From a virus, in the IMG/VR virus record IMGVR_UViG_3300009149_000022, positions 1 to 64,000 of that record: 64,000 bases of DNA, one strand, 5' to 3'. Both the position numbers and the translations under genes were made by a program. A model generated the notes under the pieces. It was given only the letters and a program-made list of their open reading frames with translations, was not told the origin of the DNA and did no database searches. Positions 3,059 to 17,534 of the stretch are shown in pieces (positions within the stretch are counted from its first letter, which is position 1; every line of letters begins with the position of its first letter).

Positions 3059-3673
3059 ATGAAAAAAATAACCGAAATTATAAACGAGGCTGAAAAGTCT
3101 AAAAAACAAAAAGAATATCAAGATTTTTTTGATAAAAAGTTGAAAAAATATGGTGTTGAATCCCCCGCTCAATTGTCTGACGAAGATAAGAAAAAGTTCT
3201 TTAACGAAGTAGACAAAGAATGGACGGGTGAAAAGGTAGACGAAAAAATAGTAGAAGATGATTTTGATTCCGAGGCAGACGAAGAATCTGAAATCCTGAA
3301 AGATGACGAAGATGACGAAGATGACGAAGATGACGAAGATGACGATGATGAAGAAGATGAAGAAGATGAAGAACATGACGATGATGAAGAAGATGAAGAT
3401 GACGAAGATGACGATGATGAAGAAGATGACGATGATGAAGAAGAAATTGATGAATCATTGAATGAGGCTGCATCTATGGATAATAAATCAGTAGATAATA
3501 TTGTTAGTGAACTTATAAAATTCAAAAACACACCAGGTGCCTTTGGTCAATTAGTAATGGATATTGTAGAAAGAATATACGACAAAAGTGATGACAAAGA
3601 ACTTACAGTGGCAGTAATTAACAACGCCGTTAAAAACTTATCACAAGTCAGTAAAGAACTTAACAAAAGGTAG
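3059..3673 (+). CDS. Hyper-acidic protein with capsid-targeting-like leader
   Basis: 204 aa. Residues 1-10 (MKKITEIINE) followed by Ala match the T4 capsid-targeting sequence pattern (MKTYQEFIAE then Ala), cut by the prohead protease after Glu10. A mixed-charge segment follows, then residues ~82-128 are almost pure Asp/Glu, encoded by a gatgacgaa-type repeat. A second possible gp21 site, LNE followed by Ala at E136, separates the acidic tract from a normal C-terminal domain (NIVSELIKFKNTPG onward). I infer a protein packaged in the prohead core whose acidic part may be scaffold-like or DNA-mimicking. No named homologue. A strong terminator follows. Confidence 0.8.
   Translation: MKKITEIINEAEKSKKQKEYQDFFDKKLKKYGVESPAQLSDEDKKKFFNEVDKEWTGEKVDEKIVEDDFDSEADEESEILKDDEDDEDDEDDEDDDDEEDEEDEEHDDDEEDEDDEDDDDEEDDDDEEEIDESLNEAASMDNKSVDNIVSELIKFKNTPGAFGQLVMDIVERIYDKSDDKELTVAVINNAVKNLSQVSKELNKR
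3302..3447 (+). repeat. Low-complexity Asp/Glu codon repeat
   Basis: Imperfect 9-nt repeats (gatgacgaa and gatgatgaa forms) encode an unbroken Asp/Glu tract. They create long spurious open frames (poly-Ser, His/Leu-rich) on the opposite strand. Confidence 0.85.
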
Positions 3674-3696
3674 TTCATATAAATAATGTACAACAC

Positions 3697-3729
3697 AAAA
3701 GGAATCTCAAAAAAAAGATTCCTTTTTTT
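3697..3729 (+). terminator. Rho-independent terminator
   Basis: Stem AAAGGAATC / GATTCCTTT with an A-rich loop and a T run, just after the acidic-protein gene and immediately before the next late-promoter-like motif. Confidence 0.85.
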
Positions 3730-3732
3730 GTT

Positions 3733-3741
3733 GATTAAATA
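3733..3741 (+). promoter_or_regulatory. Late-promoter-like motif GATTAAATA
   Basis: Directly follows a terminator and lies 19 nt before the ATG at 3761. The terminator, motif, gene order recurs throughout the window. Confidence 0.55.
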
Positions 3742-9242: not shown

Positions 9243-9491
9243 ATGGACATAAGAATAAACAACATTCTTGACTTGCAATTAGTAAATGATGATGTGTCTA
9301 CGTTTGTCAATGTTTTTGGTGTCCTAAAGACAGCAATAGAAAAACAAGGTGAAAAGGTAGGGTTTAAGAAGAATGGAACAATTACTATTGAGTTATCAGA
9401 AGATCAATTAGAATTTGTTATGTCAGTATGTGAAAATATTGGTATAGTATCAGATGTTGATTCTAGTGACACAGAAGTAGATAAATTATGA
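9243..9491 (+). CDS. Small acidic protein at head of the DNA polymerase operon
   Basis: 82 aa, first gene of the replication operon, overlapping the polymerase gene by 4 nt (ATGA-type), so probably coupled to it. The sequence has a helix-rich middle (FVNVFGVLKTAIEKQGEKVGF) and an acidic C-terminus (DVDSSDTEVDKL). No family recognised. A regulatory or polymerase-associated role is only a guess from position. Confidence 0.65.
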   Translation: MDIRINNILDLQLVNDDVSTFVNVFGVLKTAIEKQGEKVGFKKNGTITIELSEDQLEFVMSVCENIGIVSDVDSSDTEVDKL

Positions 9492-10996
9492 TAATAGATA
9501 TTGAACAAAATAAGTATTCTAATACAGTAAAGATTTCTTACATAGATGCAGAAAGGAATAGACAAATCATAGATATTCCAAAAAGTGATTTTTGGAAATG
9601 GCAATATAATGAAGGAAATTATGTTGACAACACCTTTAAATCTTGGGATAATAGAAATGTTATTAGGGTATCATATAAAGATGATAGTCACATAGACAAG
9701 AAAAGTATTTGGGAATGGATTAATGTACACCCACAATATAAAGATATCATATATCAATTTAATTTACCCAAGATACTTTTTTGTGATATTGAAACCGATA
9801 TACACGATGGGTTTCCCGATCCAAATGTGGCAAAAGAAAAAATAACCGCAATTACAGTTTGTTGGAAAGATGATAACAACAAAATTCAAGTTCTTGTACT
9901 AGGAGAAAAAGAAGATTTCGATTATAAAAAACAGAAAGAAATGAACAATTTTATTGTTGATTATTTTTCTAAAGTAACAGATATGGATATCATAATGAAA
10001 TATTTACATATCCCGGACGAAAAAAAATTATTAGAATCGTTTGTGAAAATTTGCTCAAAATTTCATGTCTTAACAGGATGGAATTTCATAAATACTTTTC
10101 GAGCGAATTGGGCCAATGATAGTGGTTTTGACTGGCCATTCTTATCAAATAGAATGGACTTATTAAAGGTTGACTATAAACAAATATCACCAACAAATAA
10201 CGTATCTAGGAAAAAAGATATAGGTAAAGTACCTAGTCATTTTGCAATTGTTGATTATATGTATTATTTTGATGCATTTGATAGAAGTATTAAAGTAAAA
10301 GAATCTAAAGGTTTAGATTTTGTTTCTGGACAAGTGTTGGGTGTTAAGAAATTGAAATATGGTAACTATCCTGTTATGAATGGGGATGTACTAAAAGAAA
10401 TGTATCAAAATGATTATGATACATATTGTATATACAACGCTATTGATACTATTTTAGTGCTCTTAATACACGAAAAAAGACAACCATTTACTGCCATTTT
10501 AGCACAAGGAAATGCATCAGGTAATCATATAGACAAAGCAGATTCTGCTGTTAACGTTACTGAAGGTTTTATGTCAAAAGCATATATCCAAGATAATAAA
10601 GTATTGCCCCTTATAGATATATCAAAAAGAGAAAAAGAATCTTATGAAGGTGCATATGTAAAATCTCCAATAGCTGGGTTACACACCCTAACGTGTTGTT
10701 ATGATTTTAGTTCACTTTATCCTTCTATATCTAGATTCTTAGAATTGGGGTTTGAAAATTTTGATAAAAAGATTATAGGAGATTTAAAAAAATATTCAAA
10801 CTACAAAGAACAATCTGTAAAATTAGAAAGAACTAATAATGATGAAATAATAAGTGTTACTGGTTGTGTCTTTAAAAAGGGTCAATCTACTTTGAAAACA
10901 GTATATGATGATTTGTATGCTGACAGAAAGAAAAATCAATACCGATCTAAATTGTGTGCAAAAATATCACACGAAATAAAACAAAAACGTAAATAA
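9488..10996 (+). CDS. 43: Family B DNA polymerase, piece 1 (exonuclease, palm motif A)
   Basis: 502 aa. Contains the 3'-5' exonuclease motifs in order: FCDIETD (~99, Exo I), SGFDWPFLSNR (~214, Exo II) and YDTYCIYNAIDTI (~310, Exo III Y-x3-D). These are followed by palm motif A YDFSSLYPS (~403). The frame stops at KQKRK in the early fingers, just after the ADRKK segment. Motif B and motif C are missing here and are found in the ORFs at 11819 and 12639. Role: proofreading and part of the active site of the replicative T4 gp43-type polymerase. The break position resembles the split gene 43 (43A/43B) known from some Aeromonas T4-like phages. It must assemble with the other pieces to be active. 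Confidence 0.9.
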   Translation: MIIDIEQNKYSNTVKISYIDAERNRQIIDIPKSDFWKWQYNEGNYVDNTFKSWDNRNVIRVSYKDDSHIDKKSIWEWINVHPQYKDIIYQFNLPKILFCDIETDIHDGFPDPNVAKEKITAITVCWKDDNNKIQVLVLGEKEDFDYKKQKEMNNFIVDYFSKVTDMDIIMKYLHIPDEKKLLESFVKICSKFHVLTGWNFINTFRANWANDSGFDWPFLSNRMDLLKVDYKQISPTNNVSRKKDIGKVPSHFAIVDYMYYFDAFDRSIKVKESKGLDFVSGQVLGVKKLKYGNYPVMNGDVLKEMYQNDYDTYCIYNAIDTILVLLIHEKRQPFTAILAQGNASGNHIDKADSAVNVTEGFMSKAYIQDNKVLPLIDISKREKESYEGAYVKSPIAGLHTLTCCYDFSSLYPSISRFLELGFENFDKKIIGDLKKYSNYKEQSVKLERTNNDEIISVTGCVFKKGQSTLKTVYDDLYADRKKNQYRSKLCAKISHEIKQKRK

Positions 10997-11028: not shown

Positions 11029-11817
11029 ATGAAAAAAGTAGTATTAAAAACAGTAGACCTAGTAAAGTTTAACAACTTTATTGATTCATTGATTCCACTT
11101 AATGAAACCGGAACTATTTATTTTAAAATAGATTCTAAATATATTAGTACAGATTCACATAATGATAGTGGTACTATCATTAAGAGTCTGAAATCTGAAA
11201 TTAGTCAAATATGTGGAGAATCAAACTTAGATAGTATTGATAAACCAATTAAACTTTGTTTCTATGATGGTAAAAAAGTAAAGAAAGCATTTTCCTTTTT
11301 GAGTGGTAATGAAATTACTTGTGAAATATCGTTTTCAGAACTAGAATCAACCGGTGAATATTTTGCAGAAACTGTTAAGATTTCTAGTCCTAAAATATCC
11401 ATCACATTAGATGCAGCAGACCCAGAATTATTCGAATTTGCAAATGTACCAGAAGATAAAATAGAAGAGGTTAAAAATGTTTCAAATGCTGATTGTAATT
11501 TTAGAATGAGTGCAAATGAAATTTTACAAGTTCAAAAATTCTTAGATTTTGATAAAAATGAAGAAGTTGAATTTAGAGTAAATGGACAAGTTACCGTTTG
11601 TTCAGAAGATGCTTATGATATTTCAATTTCAGATGATTTCGAAGGATTGCCTAATGGTGGTATGAATATCTATAAAATAGGTAAAGAACTATTTAAATTA
11701 GTAGATTCTAATTCATATGTTGTATATCCAGTATTAGATGAATGTAAAATAATTTTTAAAGCAGAAGATAATTCTACACAAGTAGTTATCACATTACATG
11801 AAGACATAGATTTATAA
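11029..11817 (+). CDS. 45: DNA polymerase sliding clamp-like protein (gp45-like)
   Basis: 262 aa. Two to three alternating beta-alpha-beta modules typical of processivity clamps are visible: KVVLKTVDLVKFNNFIDSLI at the start, FRMSANEILQVQKFLDFD (~165) as the second-domain helix, and CKIIFKAEDNSTQVVITLHE as the closing strands. The length is near that of T4 gp45 (228 aa). Position is striking: it sits between polymerase pieces 1 and 2, with 32 nt before it and 1 nt after it. The clamp tethers the polymerase and in T4 also activates late transcription. Sequence identity to T4 gp45 is low by eye, so the name rests on fold pattern and context. Confidence 0.6.
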   Translation: MKKVVLKTVDLVKFNNFIDSLIPLNETGTIYFKIDSKYISTDSHNDSGTIIKSLKSEISQICGESNLDSIDKPIKLCFYDGKKVKKAFSFLSGNEITCEISFSELESTGEYFAETVKISSPKISITLDAADPELFEFANVPEDKIEEVKNVSNADCNFRMSANEILQVQKFLDFDKNEEVEFRVNGQVTVCSEDAYDISISDDFEGLPNGGMNIYKIGKELFKLVDSNSYVVYPVLDECKIIFKAEDNSTQVVITLHEDIDL

Positions 11818-11818
11818 T

Positions 11819-12562
11819 ATGTCCATAAGCATTAAAAATATGAGCACAGAAGAACTAGAGAATTTCGATTGGGATTCTCTAGATGATTCTCAATTAGATA
11901 AAGTTCTTGTTCAGTTAGATGATGAAGCCAATATTAAGAAAACACTAGAGCAAAGTAACAAATTAGTTCTTAATTCAATATATGGCGCACTTGCGTCTAA
12001 ATACTTTTATTGGTATGATAAATCATTAGCTGAAACTATTACTATACAAGGTCAAGATGCTATTCGATATGCTGAAAAGGCATTAGATTCTTATTTTCAT
12101 AATGTTTTTCACAAAGATAAATTAGTTTTGACTAAACTAAAAGAATTGTGTCCAGATGTTAATATTGAACCACAACCGTGTGTGAAACCCACTGTGGTAT
12201 ATATTGATACGGATAGTGTCGATAAAGATACTATTGTTAGTACTAATAAAGGCAATATTAGAATAGAAGATTTATATAACGAATCTAACAATAGTGCTGG
12301 TAATACACAAAACGGTCACGAATCAGTAACAACCAATAAAACCGTATTAAATTGGTCAAAAGAAAAAGGACTATATCAAGCACCAGTGAAAAGAGTTATT
12401 AGACACAAAGTAACTAAAGCAAAGTGGAAACTTAAAACTAAATCAGGAAAGGAAGTAATCGTAACTAATGACCACTCTATGATTGTTTTTAGGAATGGTA
12501 TTAAAGTTCAAGTTAAACCATCAGAAATTAAAAAAACTGATAAAATATTATCAGTTTTGTAG
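11819..12562 (+). CDS. 43: Family B DNA polymerase, piece 2 (motif B, motif C start) fused to N-terminal split intein
   Basis: 247 aa. Residues 1-48 match the helical fingers of T4-type polymerases. Motif B follows as KLVLNSIYGALASKYFYWYD (48-67). Motif C then begins as VYIDTD (127-132). At S133 an intein begins: SVDKDTIVSTNKGNIRIEDL (block A), and TNDHSMIVFRNG (block B, T-x-x-H) near 212. The ORF ends after KILSVL with TAG. The start is 1 nt after the clamp stop, suggesting coupled translation. Mature joining to the next ORF would rebuild YIDTDSAYVTF exactly. Trans-splicing is inferred. Confidence 0.9.
   Translation: MSISIKNMSTEELENFDWDSLDDSQLDKVLVQLDDEANIKKTLEQSNKLVLNSIYGALASKYFYWYDKSLAETITIQGQDAIRYAEKALDSYFHNVFHKDKLVLTKLKELCPDVNIEPQPCVKPTVVYIDTDSVDKDTIVSTNKGNIRIEDLYNESNNSAGNTQNGHESVTTNKTVLNWSKEKGLYQAPVKRVIRHKVTKAKWKLKTKSGKEVIVTNDHSMIVFRNGIKVQVKPSEIKKTDKILSVL
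12215..12559 (+). mobile_element. Split intein, N-terminal half (IntN, 115 aa)
   Basis: Begins with Ser1 directly after YIDTD, the pol-c insertion site used by archaeal and viral family-B polymerase inteins. Block A and block B motifs are present; no LAGLIDADG endonuclease is encoded. It ends at a stop codon, so splicing must be in trans. Confidence 0.85.
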
Positions 12563-12638
12563 TTCATTATGGAAAGAATTAATATGGCATAATGGACAAA
12601 GAAAACAAATTCAATAGAACAAGTAGAAAAAATAGTAA

Positions 12639-12767
12639 ATGAAATACGAAATAGAAGAAATAGAATCAATTGAGTGTATAGGAGATTTCGAAGATGAATA
12701 TGTCTATGATATTGAAGTAGATGACGATACTCACACTTTCATTGCTAATGGTATATTAGTTCATAAT
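12639..12767 (+). mobile_element. Split intein, C-terminal half (IntC, 43 aa)
   Basis: 43 codons with block F and the terminal VHN followed by Ser. The half sizes (115 and 43) are close to natural split inteins of the DnaE type. The 76 nt between the halves encode nothing recognisable and may be the scar of a lost endonuclease. Confidence 0.85.
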
Positions 12768-13592
12768 AGTGCTTATGTTACTTTCGAAGAGGTTGCGGAA
12801 AAAATTAATTGGACGGGTTCTCCTACTGATCTTGTATTAACTATTAATGAAATTAGATTATCTGGTTATCTAAAAAAGGTATTTGATAAATACGCCGAAT
12901 CTTACAACACAGATAATTATTTAGATTTCGAATTAGAAACTATTAGTAAATCTGGTATATGGGTTAAGAAAAAGAAATACACACAAGATATTGTGTGGGC
13001 TGATGGTAAATTCTATGATAGTGGAACATATACAAAAACAACCGGTCTTGAAATTATTAGACTAACAACACCACCTTTTTGTAGACCTGAATTATCTAAA
13101 TTGGTTCAATGGATATTTGATAAAGGTAAAAACTTTACACAAAGAGATATAACCATTGAATTACTAAAACTAAAGAAACGATTTGCCATAGCAGGTATAG
13201 AAGACATTTCGATAACAACAGCAATTGGTGACTATGAAAAATATGTTATAGATGACAAAGACTCTTTAAATCTCAATGATGGTTGTGGTACACATATTAG
13301 AGGTGCTGCGATTTATAATATGTACATTAATAACAATTCATCATATGAAAATCAATACGAAAGGTTAAAAACGGGTGACAAGGTAAAATGGTATTATGCA
13401 AAATCACATAAATCAGATTATAACGTTTTTAGTTTTAAACGTGGTTCATTCCCTAAAGAATTTGCACCAGAAGTGGATATTGATTTGATGTTTGAAAAAA
13501 CTATCATAAATCCATTAAACAACATACTACAAGCAATACCAGGTATTAATAAACTATCTGGATCTTTAAAAATTAAAAATCGTTTATTTTAA
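12639..13592 (+). CDS. 43: C-terminal split intein fused to family B DNA polymerase, piece 3 (palm/thumb)
   Basis: 317 aa. Residues 1-43 are the intein C-half: YVYDIEVDDDTHTFIANG (block F) and ILVHN (block G, ends His-Asn). Ser44 is the +1 extein residue, starting SAYVTF of motif C. The rest is palm and thumb: SGIWVKKKKYT (~103) corresponds to the K-K-x-Y motif and TTGLEIIRLTTPPF to the conserved segment after it. The C-terminus SGSLKIKNRLF is the expected clamp-binding tail position. It starts 76 nt after piece 2 in another frame, with a stop codon just before its ATG, so it is a separate ORF. Confidence 0.9.
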   Translation: MKYEIEEIESIECIGDFEDEYVYDIEVDDDTHTFIANGILVHNSAYVTFEEVAEKINWTGSPTDLVLTINEIRLSGYLKKVFDKYAESYNTDNYLDFELETISKSGIWVKKKKYTQDIVWADGKFYDSGTYTKTTGLEIIRLTTPPFCRPELSKLVQWIFDKGKNFTQRDITIELLKLKKRFAIAGIEDISITTAIGDYEKYVIDDKDSLNLNDGCGTHIRGAAIYNMYINNNSSYENQYERLKTGDKVKWYYAKSHKSDYNVFSFKRGSFPKEFAPEVDIDLMFEKTIINPLNNILQAIPGINKLSGSLKIKNRLF

Positions 13593-13609
13593 AAAAATGA
13601 AATAATTAT

Positions 13610-14830
13610 ATGACAAAAGTAAGTAAAAAACACAGTTCTGTCGATGACATATTCAAAGAATTAGGAGAAGTTAACCCCTTTGGAACAAGTTCCTTTGGTA
13701 ATTCAGAAACCTATAAGAATGAAACATGGATAGATTCTGGTAATTGGATTTTAAATGCAGCCCTAAGTGGATCAATAAAAAAAGGGTTTCCAAGTACTAA
13801 ACAAACCAGTTTAGTAGGAGAATCTGGTAGTGGAAAAACATTCTTAACATTGAACGCTGTAAGAAATGCCCAACAAATGGGTTACACACCAATATATTAC
13901 GATACAGAAGGTGCTGTTGATCCACAAGCATGTATAAATTTTGGAATTGATTTAGATAATTTTAGACACGAACCAGTTTCCGAAATCGAAAAACTGAAAA
14001 CCATGTTTGCTATTTTTATCAAGAGTTTAACAGATTTAAAAATAAAAGGTAAAGAAATTCCAAAATTTATTTTGATTCTAGATTCTATTGGTATGGTTGC
14101 ATCATCTAAAGAAATCGAAGATGCGAGAACGGGTAATAGTGCTGCGGATATGACAAGAGCAAAACAAATACGATCTTTTTTTAGAATAATCACATCTGAT
14201 TTAAATTCATTGGGAATACCTATGTTATTCACAAATCACGTAGGTGTTAATATAGGAGGATATGGTGATCCTGTTGTACAAGGTGGTGGTAGTGGTGTGG
14301 TTTATTCACCAAGTATTACATTATTTTTATCTAAAGCTAAATTGAAAGATGATAAAGGTGATGATAAGAAACAAACTGGTGTTATAGTTACAGCAAAAAC
14401 CGGTAAAAATAGATTTGCACAACCAAAAACAATTAAATTCCCCATTTTCTTTGATAGACCGTTTAATAGATATATGGGTGTACAAGATTATTTGACTTGG
14501 GAAAATGTGGGTATTGCAAAGGGTAATATTTTAACAGAAAAAGAATATAGTAAACTCAAAGGTGCTGAATTAGAAAAAGTTAAATCATTCACACCATCTG
14601 GTAGTGAAGAAGTAATGTATTTTATGCCAAAAGAAACAGCTAGGAATTATGTTATTGAACATTTGGGTATTACGGTTGACGCACGAAACTTATTTACTGA
14701 TAAAGTAATGTTACCCTTAGAAGACCGATTCGATAAAGTTATTAGAAAAGATTTTGAGTTTAGTTCCCAAGAATCTGATAGTGAAATAGATGGTTTGATA
14801 GATGAATCTGATGAAGAAATCGAAGATTAA
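13610..14830 (+). CDS. uvsX: UvsX-like recombinase (RecA/RAD51 family)
   Basis: 406 aa. Walker A GESGSGKT at 70-77; the acidic YYDTEGAVD near 100 is the RecA-type glutamate region; Walker B KFILILDSIG (~155); DNA-binding loop region SGVVYSPSITLF (~230). The C-terminus is strongly acidic (SDSEIDGLIDESDEEIED), as in T4 UvsX. Role: ATP-dependent strand exchange in recombination-dependent replication together with the polymerase, helicase and gp46/47 encoded nearby. It follows polymerase piece 3 by 17 nt and is closed by a terminator. Confidence 0.9.
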   Translation: MTKVSKKHSSVDDIFKELGEVNPFGTSSFGNSETYKNETWIDSGNWILNAALSGSIKKGFPSTKQTSLVGESGSGKTFLTLNAVRNAQQMGYTPIYYDTEGAVDPQACINFGIDLDNFRHEPVSEIEKLKTMFAIFIKSLTDLKIKGKEIPKFILILDSIGMVASSKEIEDARTGNSAADMTRAKQIRSFFRIITSDLNSLGIPMLFTNHVGVNIGGYGDPVVQGGGSGVVYSPSITLFLSKAKLKDDKGDDKKQTGVIVTAKTGKNRFAQPKTIKFPIFFDRPFNRYMGVQDYLTWENVGIAKGNILTEKEYSKLKGAELEKVKSFTPSGSEEVMYFMPKETARNYVIEHLGITVDARNLFTDKVMLPLEDRFDKVIRKDFEFSSQESDSEIDGLIDESDEEIED

Positions 14831-15176: not shown

Positions 15177-15202
15177 GTTGTAATATACAAATAAGATTGT
15201 AT

Positions 15203-16501
15203 ATGATAAACACAAGTGAATTTGAAAAGATTTTTTTACTTTTCGCATTAGAAAATCCGGTATATTTAGAACCCATAGAAAGATCATTTTTTTCTGTTCC
15301 TGAAATAGATTTACTTGCAATAATTTCTAAAAAATATTATAAGAAATTCAAAAAAGCACCATCAAAAGAAAACTTGTGGATGTTAATATCTACTGGTGAA
15401 TTAGAAGAAAAATGTCCTAAGATTTTTTTCGATGAAATATTTAAGAAAAACATTAGAGAATATGATATTGAATGGGTTGAACAAACGGCACAATCTTGGA
15501 TTAAATGGAAACACTTAGATTCTTCAATTGTAGATACTGTTGAATATATAAACACCGCAAAAGTTACACCAGAAAATGTTGGTGAAATTGTTGATAGTGT
15601 TAAGAATATGATTAATGGTAGAAACAATCTAACATTTGATGATGATCTGGGTACAGACTTTTTTGATGCAAAATCCCATAAAAGAAATGCAGAAGATTTA
15701 CTTAGTTCTAATTACGATTTCATAGATAAAAACTTAGGTGGTCATTCTAAAGGTACACTAAATGTGTATATTGCACCACCTAATACTGGTAAGTCATTAT
15801 TCCTTTGTCAAGATGCTGCTAATTATATTAAATCGGGAAAAAATGTTTTATACATTTCATTAGAAATGCAAGGACAAAAGGTACATAAACGAATAGGTTC
15901 TGATATTTTCAACATAAATATAAGTCAATACGACAAAAAAGCCGAAGATTTAGACTATATGCAACGTAAGATTACTGAATTCAAAGAAATGAATTTAGTA
16001 ACACCGGGTGCATTAACAGTTAGGAATTACGAAACTAGTAATGCAACAGCTGATGATATTGATAATTTTATTGGTAAAATACAAGATATAACTGGTATAA
16101 TATATGATGTTGTTTTGGTTGACTATATCAACATCATGAAAGATAAAAGAAATCCTAATTCTGAATCTACATATTTGAAAATTAAAAATATATCAGAGGA
16201 TTTAAGAGCAGTTGCACAAAGAAGACATGTTGTGATGATAAGTGCCACACAAACAAATAAAATGGGAATAGAATCGTCTAATTTAAATTTAAGCCATATT
16301 GCAGAGTCAGCTGGTCTTGCTGCAACTTGTGATACTATTATGGCTATTATACAAACAGCTGAAATGAATTTAGAAAATTTCTATTGGTTGAAACTCATAA
16401 AAGTTAGAGATGGATCAAAGGGTGCTAAATGTCGTATCAATATAGACTATGATTATATGAGACTTACTGAAACCAATACTGTTATGTTCGATTCGGAATA
16501 A
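15203..16501 (+). CDS. 41: Replicative DNA helicase (T4 gp41 / DnaB-like)
   Basis: 432 aa from the ATG at 15203 (a TTG two codons upstream is less likely). Walker A APPNTGKS at ~191-198 with a preceding linker; NVLYISLEMQG is the DnaB H1a-like motif; YDVVLVDYINIM is Walker B; MISATQTNK carries the sensor Gln; the C-terminal RINIDYDYM strand closes the RecA fold. Role: hexameric helicase at the phage fork. Its last ~23 codons are duplicated, with divergence, beyond the GIY-YIG gene that follows (17530-17604). The gene itself is complete. Confidence 0.9.
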   Translation: MINTSEFEKIFLLFALENPVYLEPIERSFFSVPEIDLLAIISKKYYKKFKKAPSKENLWMLISTGELEEKCPKIFFDEIFKKNIREYDIEWVEQTAQSWIKWKHLDSSIVDTVEYINTAKVTPENVGEIVDSVKNMINGRNNLTFDDDLGTDFFDAKSHKRNAEDLLSSNYDFIDKNLGGHSKGTLNVYIAPPNTGKSLFLCQDAANYIKSGKNVLYISLEMQGQKVHKRIGSDIFNINISQYDKKAEDLDYMQRKITEFKEMNLVTPGALTVRNYETSNATADDIDNFIGKIQDITGIIYDVVLVDYINIMKDKRNPNSESTYLKIKNISEDLRAVAQRRHVVMISATQTNKMGIESSNLNLSHIAESAGLAATCDTIMAIIQTAEMNLENFYWLKLIKVRDGSKGAKCRINIDYDYMRLTETNTVMFDSE

Positions 16502-16586: not shown

Positions 16587-17534
16587 ATGAAGATAACCGA
16601 AAATGATAATATACAATGGGAAAGAATGGGAATTTACATATTACTAAATGAAAACGGAAAGTGTTATATAGGTAGTACTAACAATATAAAAAATAGATAT
16701 TTTAGACATAAACACCTGTTGGTGAATGGTAAACACGGCAAGTATATACAAAGAGCATATAATAAAAAAACAGCTAAGTTTAATTTTGAAATATTGGAAT
16801 ATGTAGACGATGTTAAAGATTTAAGAAAAAGAGAGGCACACTATATAAAAGAATACCAATCTATGTACTATCAAAATGGATATAATATTTTTGATGTGGA
16901 TGATAATGGATATTTTTGCCATTCAGATGAAACTAAAAAGAAAATATCAGAAGCAAATAGAGGTAAAATACCATATATAGATATTTTTGGGGCACATGGT
17001 GTGACAACTAAAGATGATACAAGATGGGAAAGTGGCGAAATATATCACAATACTACAAATAAAGTTTCTTGTATAGATAGTAATGGAAATACTAAAGTGG
17101 TAACTATGGAAGAATTTGAATCATCAAAAGATTTGTTTGGTGTCAATAAAGGTAAAAGTACATACAAGGACAAGTATGGAAATACTACAATGACTACCAT
17201 AGATGACCCTAGAGTATTAAGTGGTGAGTTGGTTGGTATTACTAAAGGAATACCTTCATTGCATGCCAAGGTAATTACTGTTGATGGTATAACATATCGT
17301 TCGTTAGAAGATGCATATACAACACTAGGAATATCAAAACCAACTTTCCGTAAACTATTAAAGGATGTAAATAATATTATATCTACCGTTCCATTTCAAG
17401 TGTCATTGTCAAAATATTTAGACGAAAAAAATAAAAGACAAGTTATTATAGATGGTATTGTATATAAGAATATGACAGTTGCTGTGAAAGAATTAGGAAT
17501 AAGTAGGTATAAATTAAAAAAACATGAAAGCTAG
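16587..17534 (+). CDS. GIY-YIG homing endonuclease
   Basis: 315 aa. N-terminal GIY-YIG domain: GIYILLNENGKCYIGSTNN (~14-32), the catalytic Arg in KNRYFRHKHL, and Glu in KREAHYIKEYQ (~88). The rest contains repeated short DNA-binding modules (KKKISEANRGK is NUMOD3-like; LGISKPTFRKLL and ELGISRYKLKK are NUMOD1/HTH-like). It cleaves a specific DNA site to spread by homing. It lies immediately 3' of the helicase gene and is followed by a diverged copy of the helicase 3' end, consistent with insertion into or beside that gene. Confidence 0.85.
   Translation: MKITENDNIQWERMGIYILLNENGKCYIGSTNNIKNRYFRHKHLLVNGKHGKYIQRAYNKKTAKFNFEILEYVDDVKDLRKREAHYIKEYQSMYYQNGYNIFDVDDNGYFCHSDETKKKISEANRGKIPYIDIFGAHGVTTKDDTRWESGEIYHNTTNKVSCIDSNGNTKVVTMEEFESSKDLFGVNKGKSTYKDKYGNTTMTTIDDPRVLSGELVGITKGIPSLHAKVITVDGITYRSLEDAYTTLGISKPTFRKLLKDVNNIISTVPFQVSLSKYLDEKNKRQVIIDGIVYKNMTVAVKELGISRYKLKKHES

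What the first reader, a model, noticed from the sequence alone, without database searches (positions are those of the whole stretch)
11819..13592. Replicative DNA polymerase rebuilt by a natural split intein at the YxDTDS catalytic motif
ORF 11819 ends with YIDTD followed by a Ser-initiated intein N-half with blocks A and B and a stop; ORF 12639 begins with a 43-aa intein C-half ending VHN followed by SAYVTF of motif C. Removing both halves rebuilds YIDTDSAYVTF exactly. The halves are in different frames, separated by 76 nt with stops, so cis-splicing is impossible and trans-splicing is required. The catalytic aspartates are physically divided, making phage replication dependent on the split intein.
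Basis: partly seen in the sequence, partly recalled or inferred. Interest (0 to 1): 0.93.

Follow-up and report, generated by a model that had tools for sequence, protein, structure and literature searches.

The report
Phage DNA polymerase with split intein
A virus of bacteria makes the second half of its DNA-copying enzyme as two separate proteins that carry the halves of a self-splicing protein element and are almost certainly stitched together after they are made; this is real but belongs to an already described kind, and its main value is that close relatives show the same spot empty, uncut, split with a nuclease gene in the gap, and split without one.

Summary
ORF 11819-12562 ends YIDTD|SVDKD... 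(115-aa intein N-half); ORF 12639-13592 starts with a 43-aa C-half ending VHN|SAYVTF. The halves are in different frames and the 76-nt gap has a stop in every frame. It is not a sequencing error: two related contigs have the same split with other gaps (77, 210 nt), and five ~84%-identical relatives have the empty site in one ORF. All splicing residues are kept and both halves are under purifying selection, so protein trans-splicing is by far the best explanation. It is not new: Aeromonas phage Aes123 (tested in vitro), Tenacibaculum phage PTm1, Campylobacter phage CP21 and Pseudomonas phage MIJ3 have a split intein at this site, usually with an endonuclease gene in the gap. One claim fails: the intein does not divide the catalytic aspartates; both motif-C Asp lie before it. 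Motif A is on a third gene (9488-10996), set apart by a clamp gene and rejoined by no intein. My survey adds an allelic series at one bond: about 60 empty, 6 clear cis, 23 split with a long (nuclease-size) gap, 4 split with a short gap (window included), interleaved on trees, with one clear recent lateral transfer.

The parts
9488..10996 (+). gp43A: N-terminal part of the family B polymerase (exonuclease region, motif A DFSSLYPS), 502 aa; no intein at its end
   Evidence: Pfam DNA_pol_B profile positions 19-134; PHROG 2062 positions 8-494 of 502, E 1.3e-54
11029..11817 (+). probable sliding clamp (gp45-like), 262 aa, lying between gp43A and gp43B
   Evidence: no Pfam or PHROG match; low-confidence model (pLDDT 53.5) whose 50 listed PDB matches are all clamp-type proteins, best E 1.6e-6
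11819..12214 (+). gp43B, first extein piece (motif B NKLVLNSIYG, motif C up to YIDTD), 132 aa
   Evidence: Pfam DNA_pol_B positions 155-247; 72% identical to the same part of the empty allele L006
12215..12562 (+). intein N-half, 115 aa, Ser1 to Leu115, then stop
   Evidence: NCBIfam TIGR01445 E 7e-10; Ser1, H64, T84, D86, H87 invariant; dN/dS 0.14 against L004
12563..12638 (+). 76-nt spacer with stops in all three frames; possibly the scar of a lost endonuclease gene
   Evidence: marginal nuclease-profile match E 0.017, partly explained by overlap with IntC
12639..12767 (+). intein C-half, 43 aa, ending ...VYDIEVDDDTHTFIANGILVHN
   Evidence: NCBIfam TIGR01443 E 5.6e-10; H42, N43, Ser+1 invariant; dN/dS 0.06 against L004
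12768..13592 (+). gp43B, second extein piece (Ser+1, SAYVTF, rest of palm and thumb), 274 aa and stop
   Evidence: Pfam DNA_pol_B positions 245-453; 84% identical to L006

Best explanation
The second half (gp43B) of a T4-like family B replicative polymerase is encoded by two genes, each bearing one half of a canonical, serine-type (Ser1, Ser+1) split intein placed exactly between the last Asp of motif C (YIDTD) and the following Ser. The two translated halves bind, fold into one intein horseshoe and splice in trans (acyl shift at Ser1, transfer to Ser+1, Asn cyclisation), leaving a seamless YIDTDSAYVTF. The joined gp43B then pairs without a covalent link with gp43A, as known for Aeromonas phage 25. 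The element descends from a mobile 'fractured gene' unit (split intein plus VSR-type homing endonuclease); here the endonuclease is absent, leaving a 76-nt spacer. Shown: anatomy, exact junctions, residue conservation, selection, fold of a cis relative, empty/cis/split alleles in relatives. Inferred: splicing in infected cells, dependence of replication on it, and past loss of a nuclease from this particular gap.
For: Intein domains and polymerase on both ORFs. Junction equals the natural empty allele of ~84%-identical relatives. Same split in L004 and L005 with other gaps. All splicing residues invariant. dN/dS 0.14 (IntN) and 0.06 (IntC), like the polymerase pieces. Contiguous relative L011 folds with pLDDT 93.8 and matches the fused Aes123 PolB1 split intein crystal structure, TM 0.86. 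Homologous Aes123 PolB1 intein trans-splices in vitro (PMC11923092). Many relatives with a long ORF, in several cases nuclease-like, in the gap.
Against: No protein-level data for this phage. The contig is an uncultured fragment, so an intact polymerase elsewhere cannot be excluded. The wild-type Aes123 intein splices only partially as purified protein (about 30%, PMC11923092). ORF 12639 has no Shine-Dalgarno core, but neither has any of 55 ORFs of 120 aa or more in the window.
Confidence: 0.93

Rival explanations
1. Assembly or sequencing error: the true gene is one ORF with a cis-splicing mini-intein, broken by an indel.
For: A cis mini-intein exists at this site in L011 and other relatives.
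Against: L004 and L005 from other samples have the same split with gaps of 77 and 210 nt and different frame offsets; the gap has stops in all three frames; over 20 relatives have gaps of about 1-2 kb.
Confidence: 0.02
2. The pieces are joined before or during translation: programmed frameshift, ribosomal bypass, or an RNA intron in the gap.
For: T4 gene 60 shows that T4-like phages can use bypass (own knowledge); Aes508 has a group I intron elsewhere in gp43B.
Against: Frame offset is not conserved (1, 2, 0 in window, L004, L005); gap lengths run from 76 nt to about 2 kb; no Rfam family matches anywhere in the window; joining the reading frames would still need an intein to remove 158 residues.
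Confidence: 0.01
3. Decayed element: the halves no longer splice, and the polymerase works as three separate chains with intein tails, or is dead and replaced by another polymerase.
For: gp43A and gp43B already work as separate chains in phage 25 (PMC2988022); the record is a fragment, so another polymerase could exist.
Against: Purifying selection on both intein halves and on all polymerase pieces; all splicing residues kept; tails at motif C would lie in the active site (inference).
Confidence: 0.04

Closest known systems
Aes123 PolB1 split intein (Aeromonas phage Aes123, JN377899; PMC11923092; PDB 9hth)
   Same: Same bond in motif C (YIDTD|S), Ser1 and Ser+1, polymerase in three pieces (gp43A, gp43B1+IntN, gp43B2+IntC), same fold and split point
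   Different: Has a putative VSR endonuclease gene in a 984-nt gap; no clamp gene between gp43A and gp43B1; IntN 31% and IntC 58% identical over the aligned parts
Tenacibaculum phage PTm1/PTm5 'intein-containing split DNA polymerase precursor' (AP019524)
   Same: Same site; separate 43A; IntN 56% and IntC 72% identical
   Different: VSR endonuclease gene in a 1,034-nt gap; exteins only 26-32% identical
CP21 PolB1 (Campylobacter phage) and MIJ3/PA5oct (Pseudomonas jumbo phages) split PolB inteins
   Same: Same motif-C site, Ser1, split in two ORFs
   Different: Endonuclease-type ORF in the gap; more distant sequence
'Fractured genes' arrangement (Dassa et al. 2009, known to me and cited in PMC6892783; paper not held)
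   Same: Split intein halves on separate ORFs inside an essential phage DNA gene
   Different: No intact endonuclease gene between the halves in the window
gp43A/gp43B split polymerase of Aeromonas phage 25 (Petrov 2010, reviewed in PMC2988022)
   Same: Family B polymerase in two chains with no intein at that break
   Different: There the spacer is a seg gene or, in 44RR, an untranslated sequence; here a probable clamp gene

Membership tests
Canonical naturally split intein (serine-type) | Nucleophile at position 1 (block A) | tested here: met
   Ser1 invariant in 12 aligned relatives
Canonical naturally split intein (serine-type) | Block B TxxH | tested here: met
   T84-N-D86-H87, T, D and H invariant
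Canonical naturally split intein (serine-type) | C-terminal Asn, penultimate His, nucleophile at +1 | tested here: met
   H42, N43, Ser+1 invariant
Canonical naturally split intein (serine-type) | Split at the endonuclease-domain position, giving about 100-130 and 35-50 aa halves | tested here: met
   115 and 43 aa; break aligns to a loop of the L011 model; size rule from PMC13014065
Canonical naturally split intein (serine-type) | Horseshoe intein fold | tested here: met
   Tested on the contiguous relative L011, with window halves in the alignment; PDB best match 9hth, TM 0.86
Canonical naturally split intein (serine-type) | Protein trans-splicing activity | not testable with these tools
   Needs co-expression; shown in vitro only for the homologue Aes123
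Aes123/CP21 PolB1 group | Same insertion bond in family B polymerase motif C | tested here: met
   YxDTD|S ... HN|S in window, Aes123, PTm1 and others
Aes123/CP21 PolB1 group | Cysteine-less | tested here: not met
   IntN has no Cys; IntC has one, non-catalytic (ECIGDF). CP21 and the other new ones also have one Cys at a non-conserved position
'Fractured gene' unit | Free-standing homing endonuclease gene between the halves | tested here: not met
   76-nt gap only; 23 relatives have gaps over 900 nt, most with a long ORF; debris in L088 and, weaker, L005
T4-type split gp43 (43A/43B) | Exonuclease and motif A on one gene, motifs B and C on another, without an intein between | tested here: met

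The most novel reading that the evidence does not exclude
The split state of this polymerase intein is short-lived and reversible: mobile split inteins with an endonuclease invade the motif-C bond, lose the endonuclease (as in the window), and are then either re-fused into cis mini-inteins or precisely lost, so that one site in one group of phages shows the whole cycle.
Probability: 0.45. Interest if true: 0.6.

Novelty: new member of a known kind. Interest (0 to 1): 0.42.

Why it matters
As a single case it extends a known family: a phage replication enzyme that must be assembled by protein trans-splicing. Its value is comparative. Around this locus lie empty, cis, split-plus-nuclease and bare-split alleles of one bond, some in close relatives, so the question of how split inteins arise, persist without an endonuclease, and disappear can be tested directly. 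The bare-split pairs (115 + 43 aa, Ser/Ser, no Cys in the N-half) are also candidates for protein ligation tools.

Tried and rejected
Sequencing error, frameshift or bypass, and intron readings were tested and rejected. A search for relatives of the L005 gap ORF found only itself. A scan of viral contigs with the intein alignment failed, no stretch being conserved enough. The clamp model is of low confidence and is used only together with its consistent fold matches; a profile search of PDB sequences gave nothing useful for it. The likeness between the window's gap tail (VNEIRNRRN) and the end of the L030 nuclease (INDIRNRRN) was not taken as proof, because those codons overlap the conserved IntC start in another frame. 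The 'fractured genes' paper is not in the library. The extein tree is a quick one with long branches, so only counts of change are used. Five loci whose match began inside the domain (L020, L021, L109, L121, L122) were left unclassified.

Full report
WHAT IS THERE. The window is part of a 73,726-base virus record, about 26-36% G+C. ORF 11819-12562 (247 aa) carries polymerase motif B (NKLVLNSIYG) and motif C up to YIDTD, then a 115-aa intein N-half beginning SVDKDTIV, and a stop. After 76 nt with stops in all frames, ORF 12639-13592 (317 aa) begins with a 43-aa intein C-half ending GILVHN and continues SAYVTF into the rest of the polymerase. Pfam and NCBIfam match polymerase and intein on both ORFs.

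THREE POLYMERASE GENES. Upstream, ORF 9488-10996 (502 aa) holds the exonuclease region and motif A (DFSSLYPS); PHROG 2062, a 502-position polymerase family, matches it nearly full length. Between it and ORF 11819 lies ORF 11029-11817, probably the sliding clamp: its model is poor (pLDDT 53.5), yet all 50 listed fold matches are clamp-type proteins. Neither edge of this first break looks like an intein, and the break is present in intein-free relatives. It corresponds to the known gp43A/gp43B break; in Aeromonas phage 25 the two chains co-purify and polymerise (reviewed in PMC2988022). So motif-A and motif-C carboxylates are on different genes because of the 43A/43B break, not because of the intein: both Asp of YIDTD precede Ser1. 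That the metal ligands are the motif-A Asp and an Asp of motif C is established knowledge of family B polymerases, not tested here.

NOT AN ERROR. A scan of IMG/VR with the C-terminal ORF gave nine loci. L004 and L005 (86-87% identical) have the same split with gaps of 77 and 210 nt; the offset from IntN to IntC start is 1, 2 and 0 modulo 3 in window, L004 and L005. L006-L010 (83-84%) have no intein: one 406-aa ORF reading Y(I/M)DTDSAYVTF. L011 (70%) has one 563-aa ORF with a cis mini-intein at the same bond. Excision of the window's halves gives exactly the natural empty junction.

WORKING ORDER. Ser1, the RHKV histidine (H64), T84-x-D86-H87, and H42-N43-Ser+1 are invariant across relatives including Aes123, CP21 and PTm1. 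Nei-Gojobori dN/dS between window and L004 is 0.14 for IntN and 0.06 for IntC, against 0.07-0.14 for the polymerase pieces, with dS 0.77-0.87 in the intein: both halves are held by selection. AlphaFold2 on the contiguous L011 intein with 21 further rows gives pLDDT 93.8; the best PDB match is the fused Aes123 PolB1 split intein (9hth, TM 0.86, E 1.1e-13). The window's break falls in a loop of that fold, the usual endonuclease insertion point. None of 55 ORFs of 120 aa or more in the window has a Shine-Dalgarno core, and their upstream bases are 52% A, so the lack of one before ORF 12639 is no argument against its translation; a Bacteroidota host would fit (inference).

KNOWN KIND. Aeromonas phage Aes123 has gp43A, gp43B1 with N-intein, a putative VSR endonuclease and gp43B2 with C-intein, annotated so in GenBank; Aes508 adds a group I intron. 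The Aes123 intein trans-splices in vitro (PMC11923092); CP21 is listed as a further case (PMC12707363). PTm1 is annotated 'intein-containing split DNA polymerase precursor'. MIJ3 was described in 2019 (PMC6892783). All sit at the same motif-C site.

SURVEY OF THE SITE. Further scans and annotated or unannotated phage records were classified by script. After removal of identical sequences: about 60 empty; 23 split with gaps over 900 nt; 4 split with short gaps (window 76, L004 77, L088 187, L005 210); 6 clear cis alleles (L011, L031, L034, L081, CC_R7, and SCTP-2 added by hand), plus L022, called cis by the script on a weak match. PA5oct (split, endonuclease-annotated ORF in the gap) was seen but did not enter the script's table. 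Most long gaps hold an ORF over 200 aa. Of ten such ORFs scanned, three have weak MTES_1575/DUF559-type nuclease matches, two a treble-clef zinc finger, and five nothing informative; for those, 'endonuclease' rests on position, shared motifs and annotation.

TREES. On the intein tree cis, split with long gap and bare split are interleaved: cis needs 6 changes, at least 4 forced by well-supported branches; supported sister pairs are L030 (split) with L031 (cis), CP21 (split) with CC_R7 (cis), and L081 (cis) with L088 (bare split). On the extein tree the empty label needs 14 changes among 90 rows, 13 forced by starred branches. L030 (split) and L131 (empty) share about 89% DNA identity on both sides of a clean insertion. 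The counts are unrooted: they show repeated change, not its direction.

LATERAL TRANSFER AND NUCLEASE LOSS. L004 and L005 are 95% and 99% identical over IntN and IntC (third codon positions 89% and 100%) but 76-79% over the polymerase (third positions 59-65%); in 60-column windows identity is 0.88-1.00 inside the halves and falls to about 0.7-0.75 a short way outside. That is recent transfer of the element almost alone. Nuclease debris is clear in the L088 gap (profile E 8.5e-7, and 3.4e-7 on an inverted piece) and weaker in L005 (3.5e-4), in a very small search space; the window's gap is marginal (0.017), and its best part overlaps IntC in another frame. I infer, with moderate confidence only, that the window's gap is a scar of nuclease loss.

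VERDICT. It is a new member of a known kind. The added interest is the natural series of alleles at one bond of one enzyme, which I could assemble but not polarise.

Noticed in passing
L004 5487-7676, L005 8972-10791, L011 8943-11110: In these relatives the neighbouring UvsX recombinase is cut at its Walker A motif (GESG|CLPKEE... stop, about 30 aa; then ...SHN|SGKTF on another ORF): looks like an atypically split, Cys1 intein with a short N-half. L011 has a long Vsr-like ORF (9321-10589) in the gap. The window's UvsX (13610-14830) is intact.
   Followed up: partly
L004 8806-10762, L005 about 11187-14109: The gp41 helicase of these relatives is also split by an intein (SATQTNR|CLSLDTK... and ...LTHN|SGFES), gp41-1-like; L005 has a long ORF in the gap. 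So L004 and L005 have polymerase, UvsX and helicase all split by inteins in one replication cluster; the window's helicase (15197-16501) is intein-free.
   Followed up: partly
L004 about 3507-3735 against L005: A block between the clamp and gp43B genes is nearly identical in L004 and L005 while surroundings are about 75%: another recently exchanged piece, absent from the window where gp43B follows the clamp directly.
   Followed up: no
window 16587-17534: Free-standing GIY-YIG homing endonuclease (with I-TevI DNA-binding, NUMOD3 and NUMOD1 motifs) just after the gp41 gene.
   Followed up: no
L013, L014 (Prevotella Lak megaphages): Split intein at the same polymerase site, gaps 1,977 and 1,448 nt, C-half ending ILAHN|S; the records carry no annotation in the collection.
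   Followed up: partly
whole window: No Shine-Dalgarno core before any of 55 ATG ORFs of 120 aa or more; upstream bases 52% A, as in phages of hosts that do not use Shine-Dalgarno initiation.
   Followed up: partly
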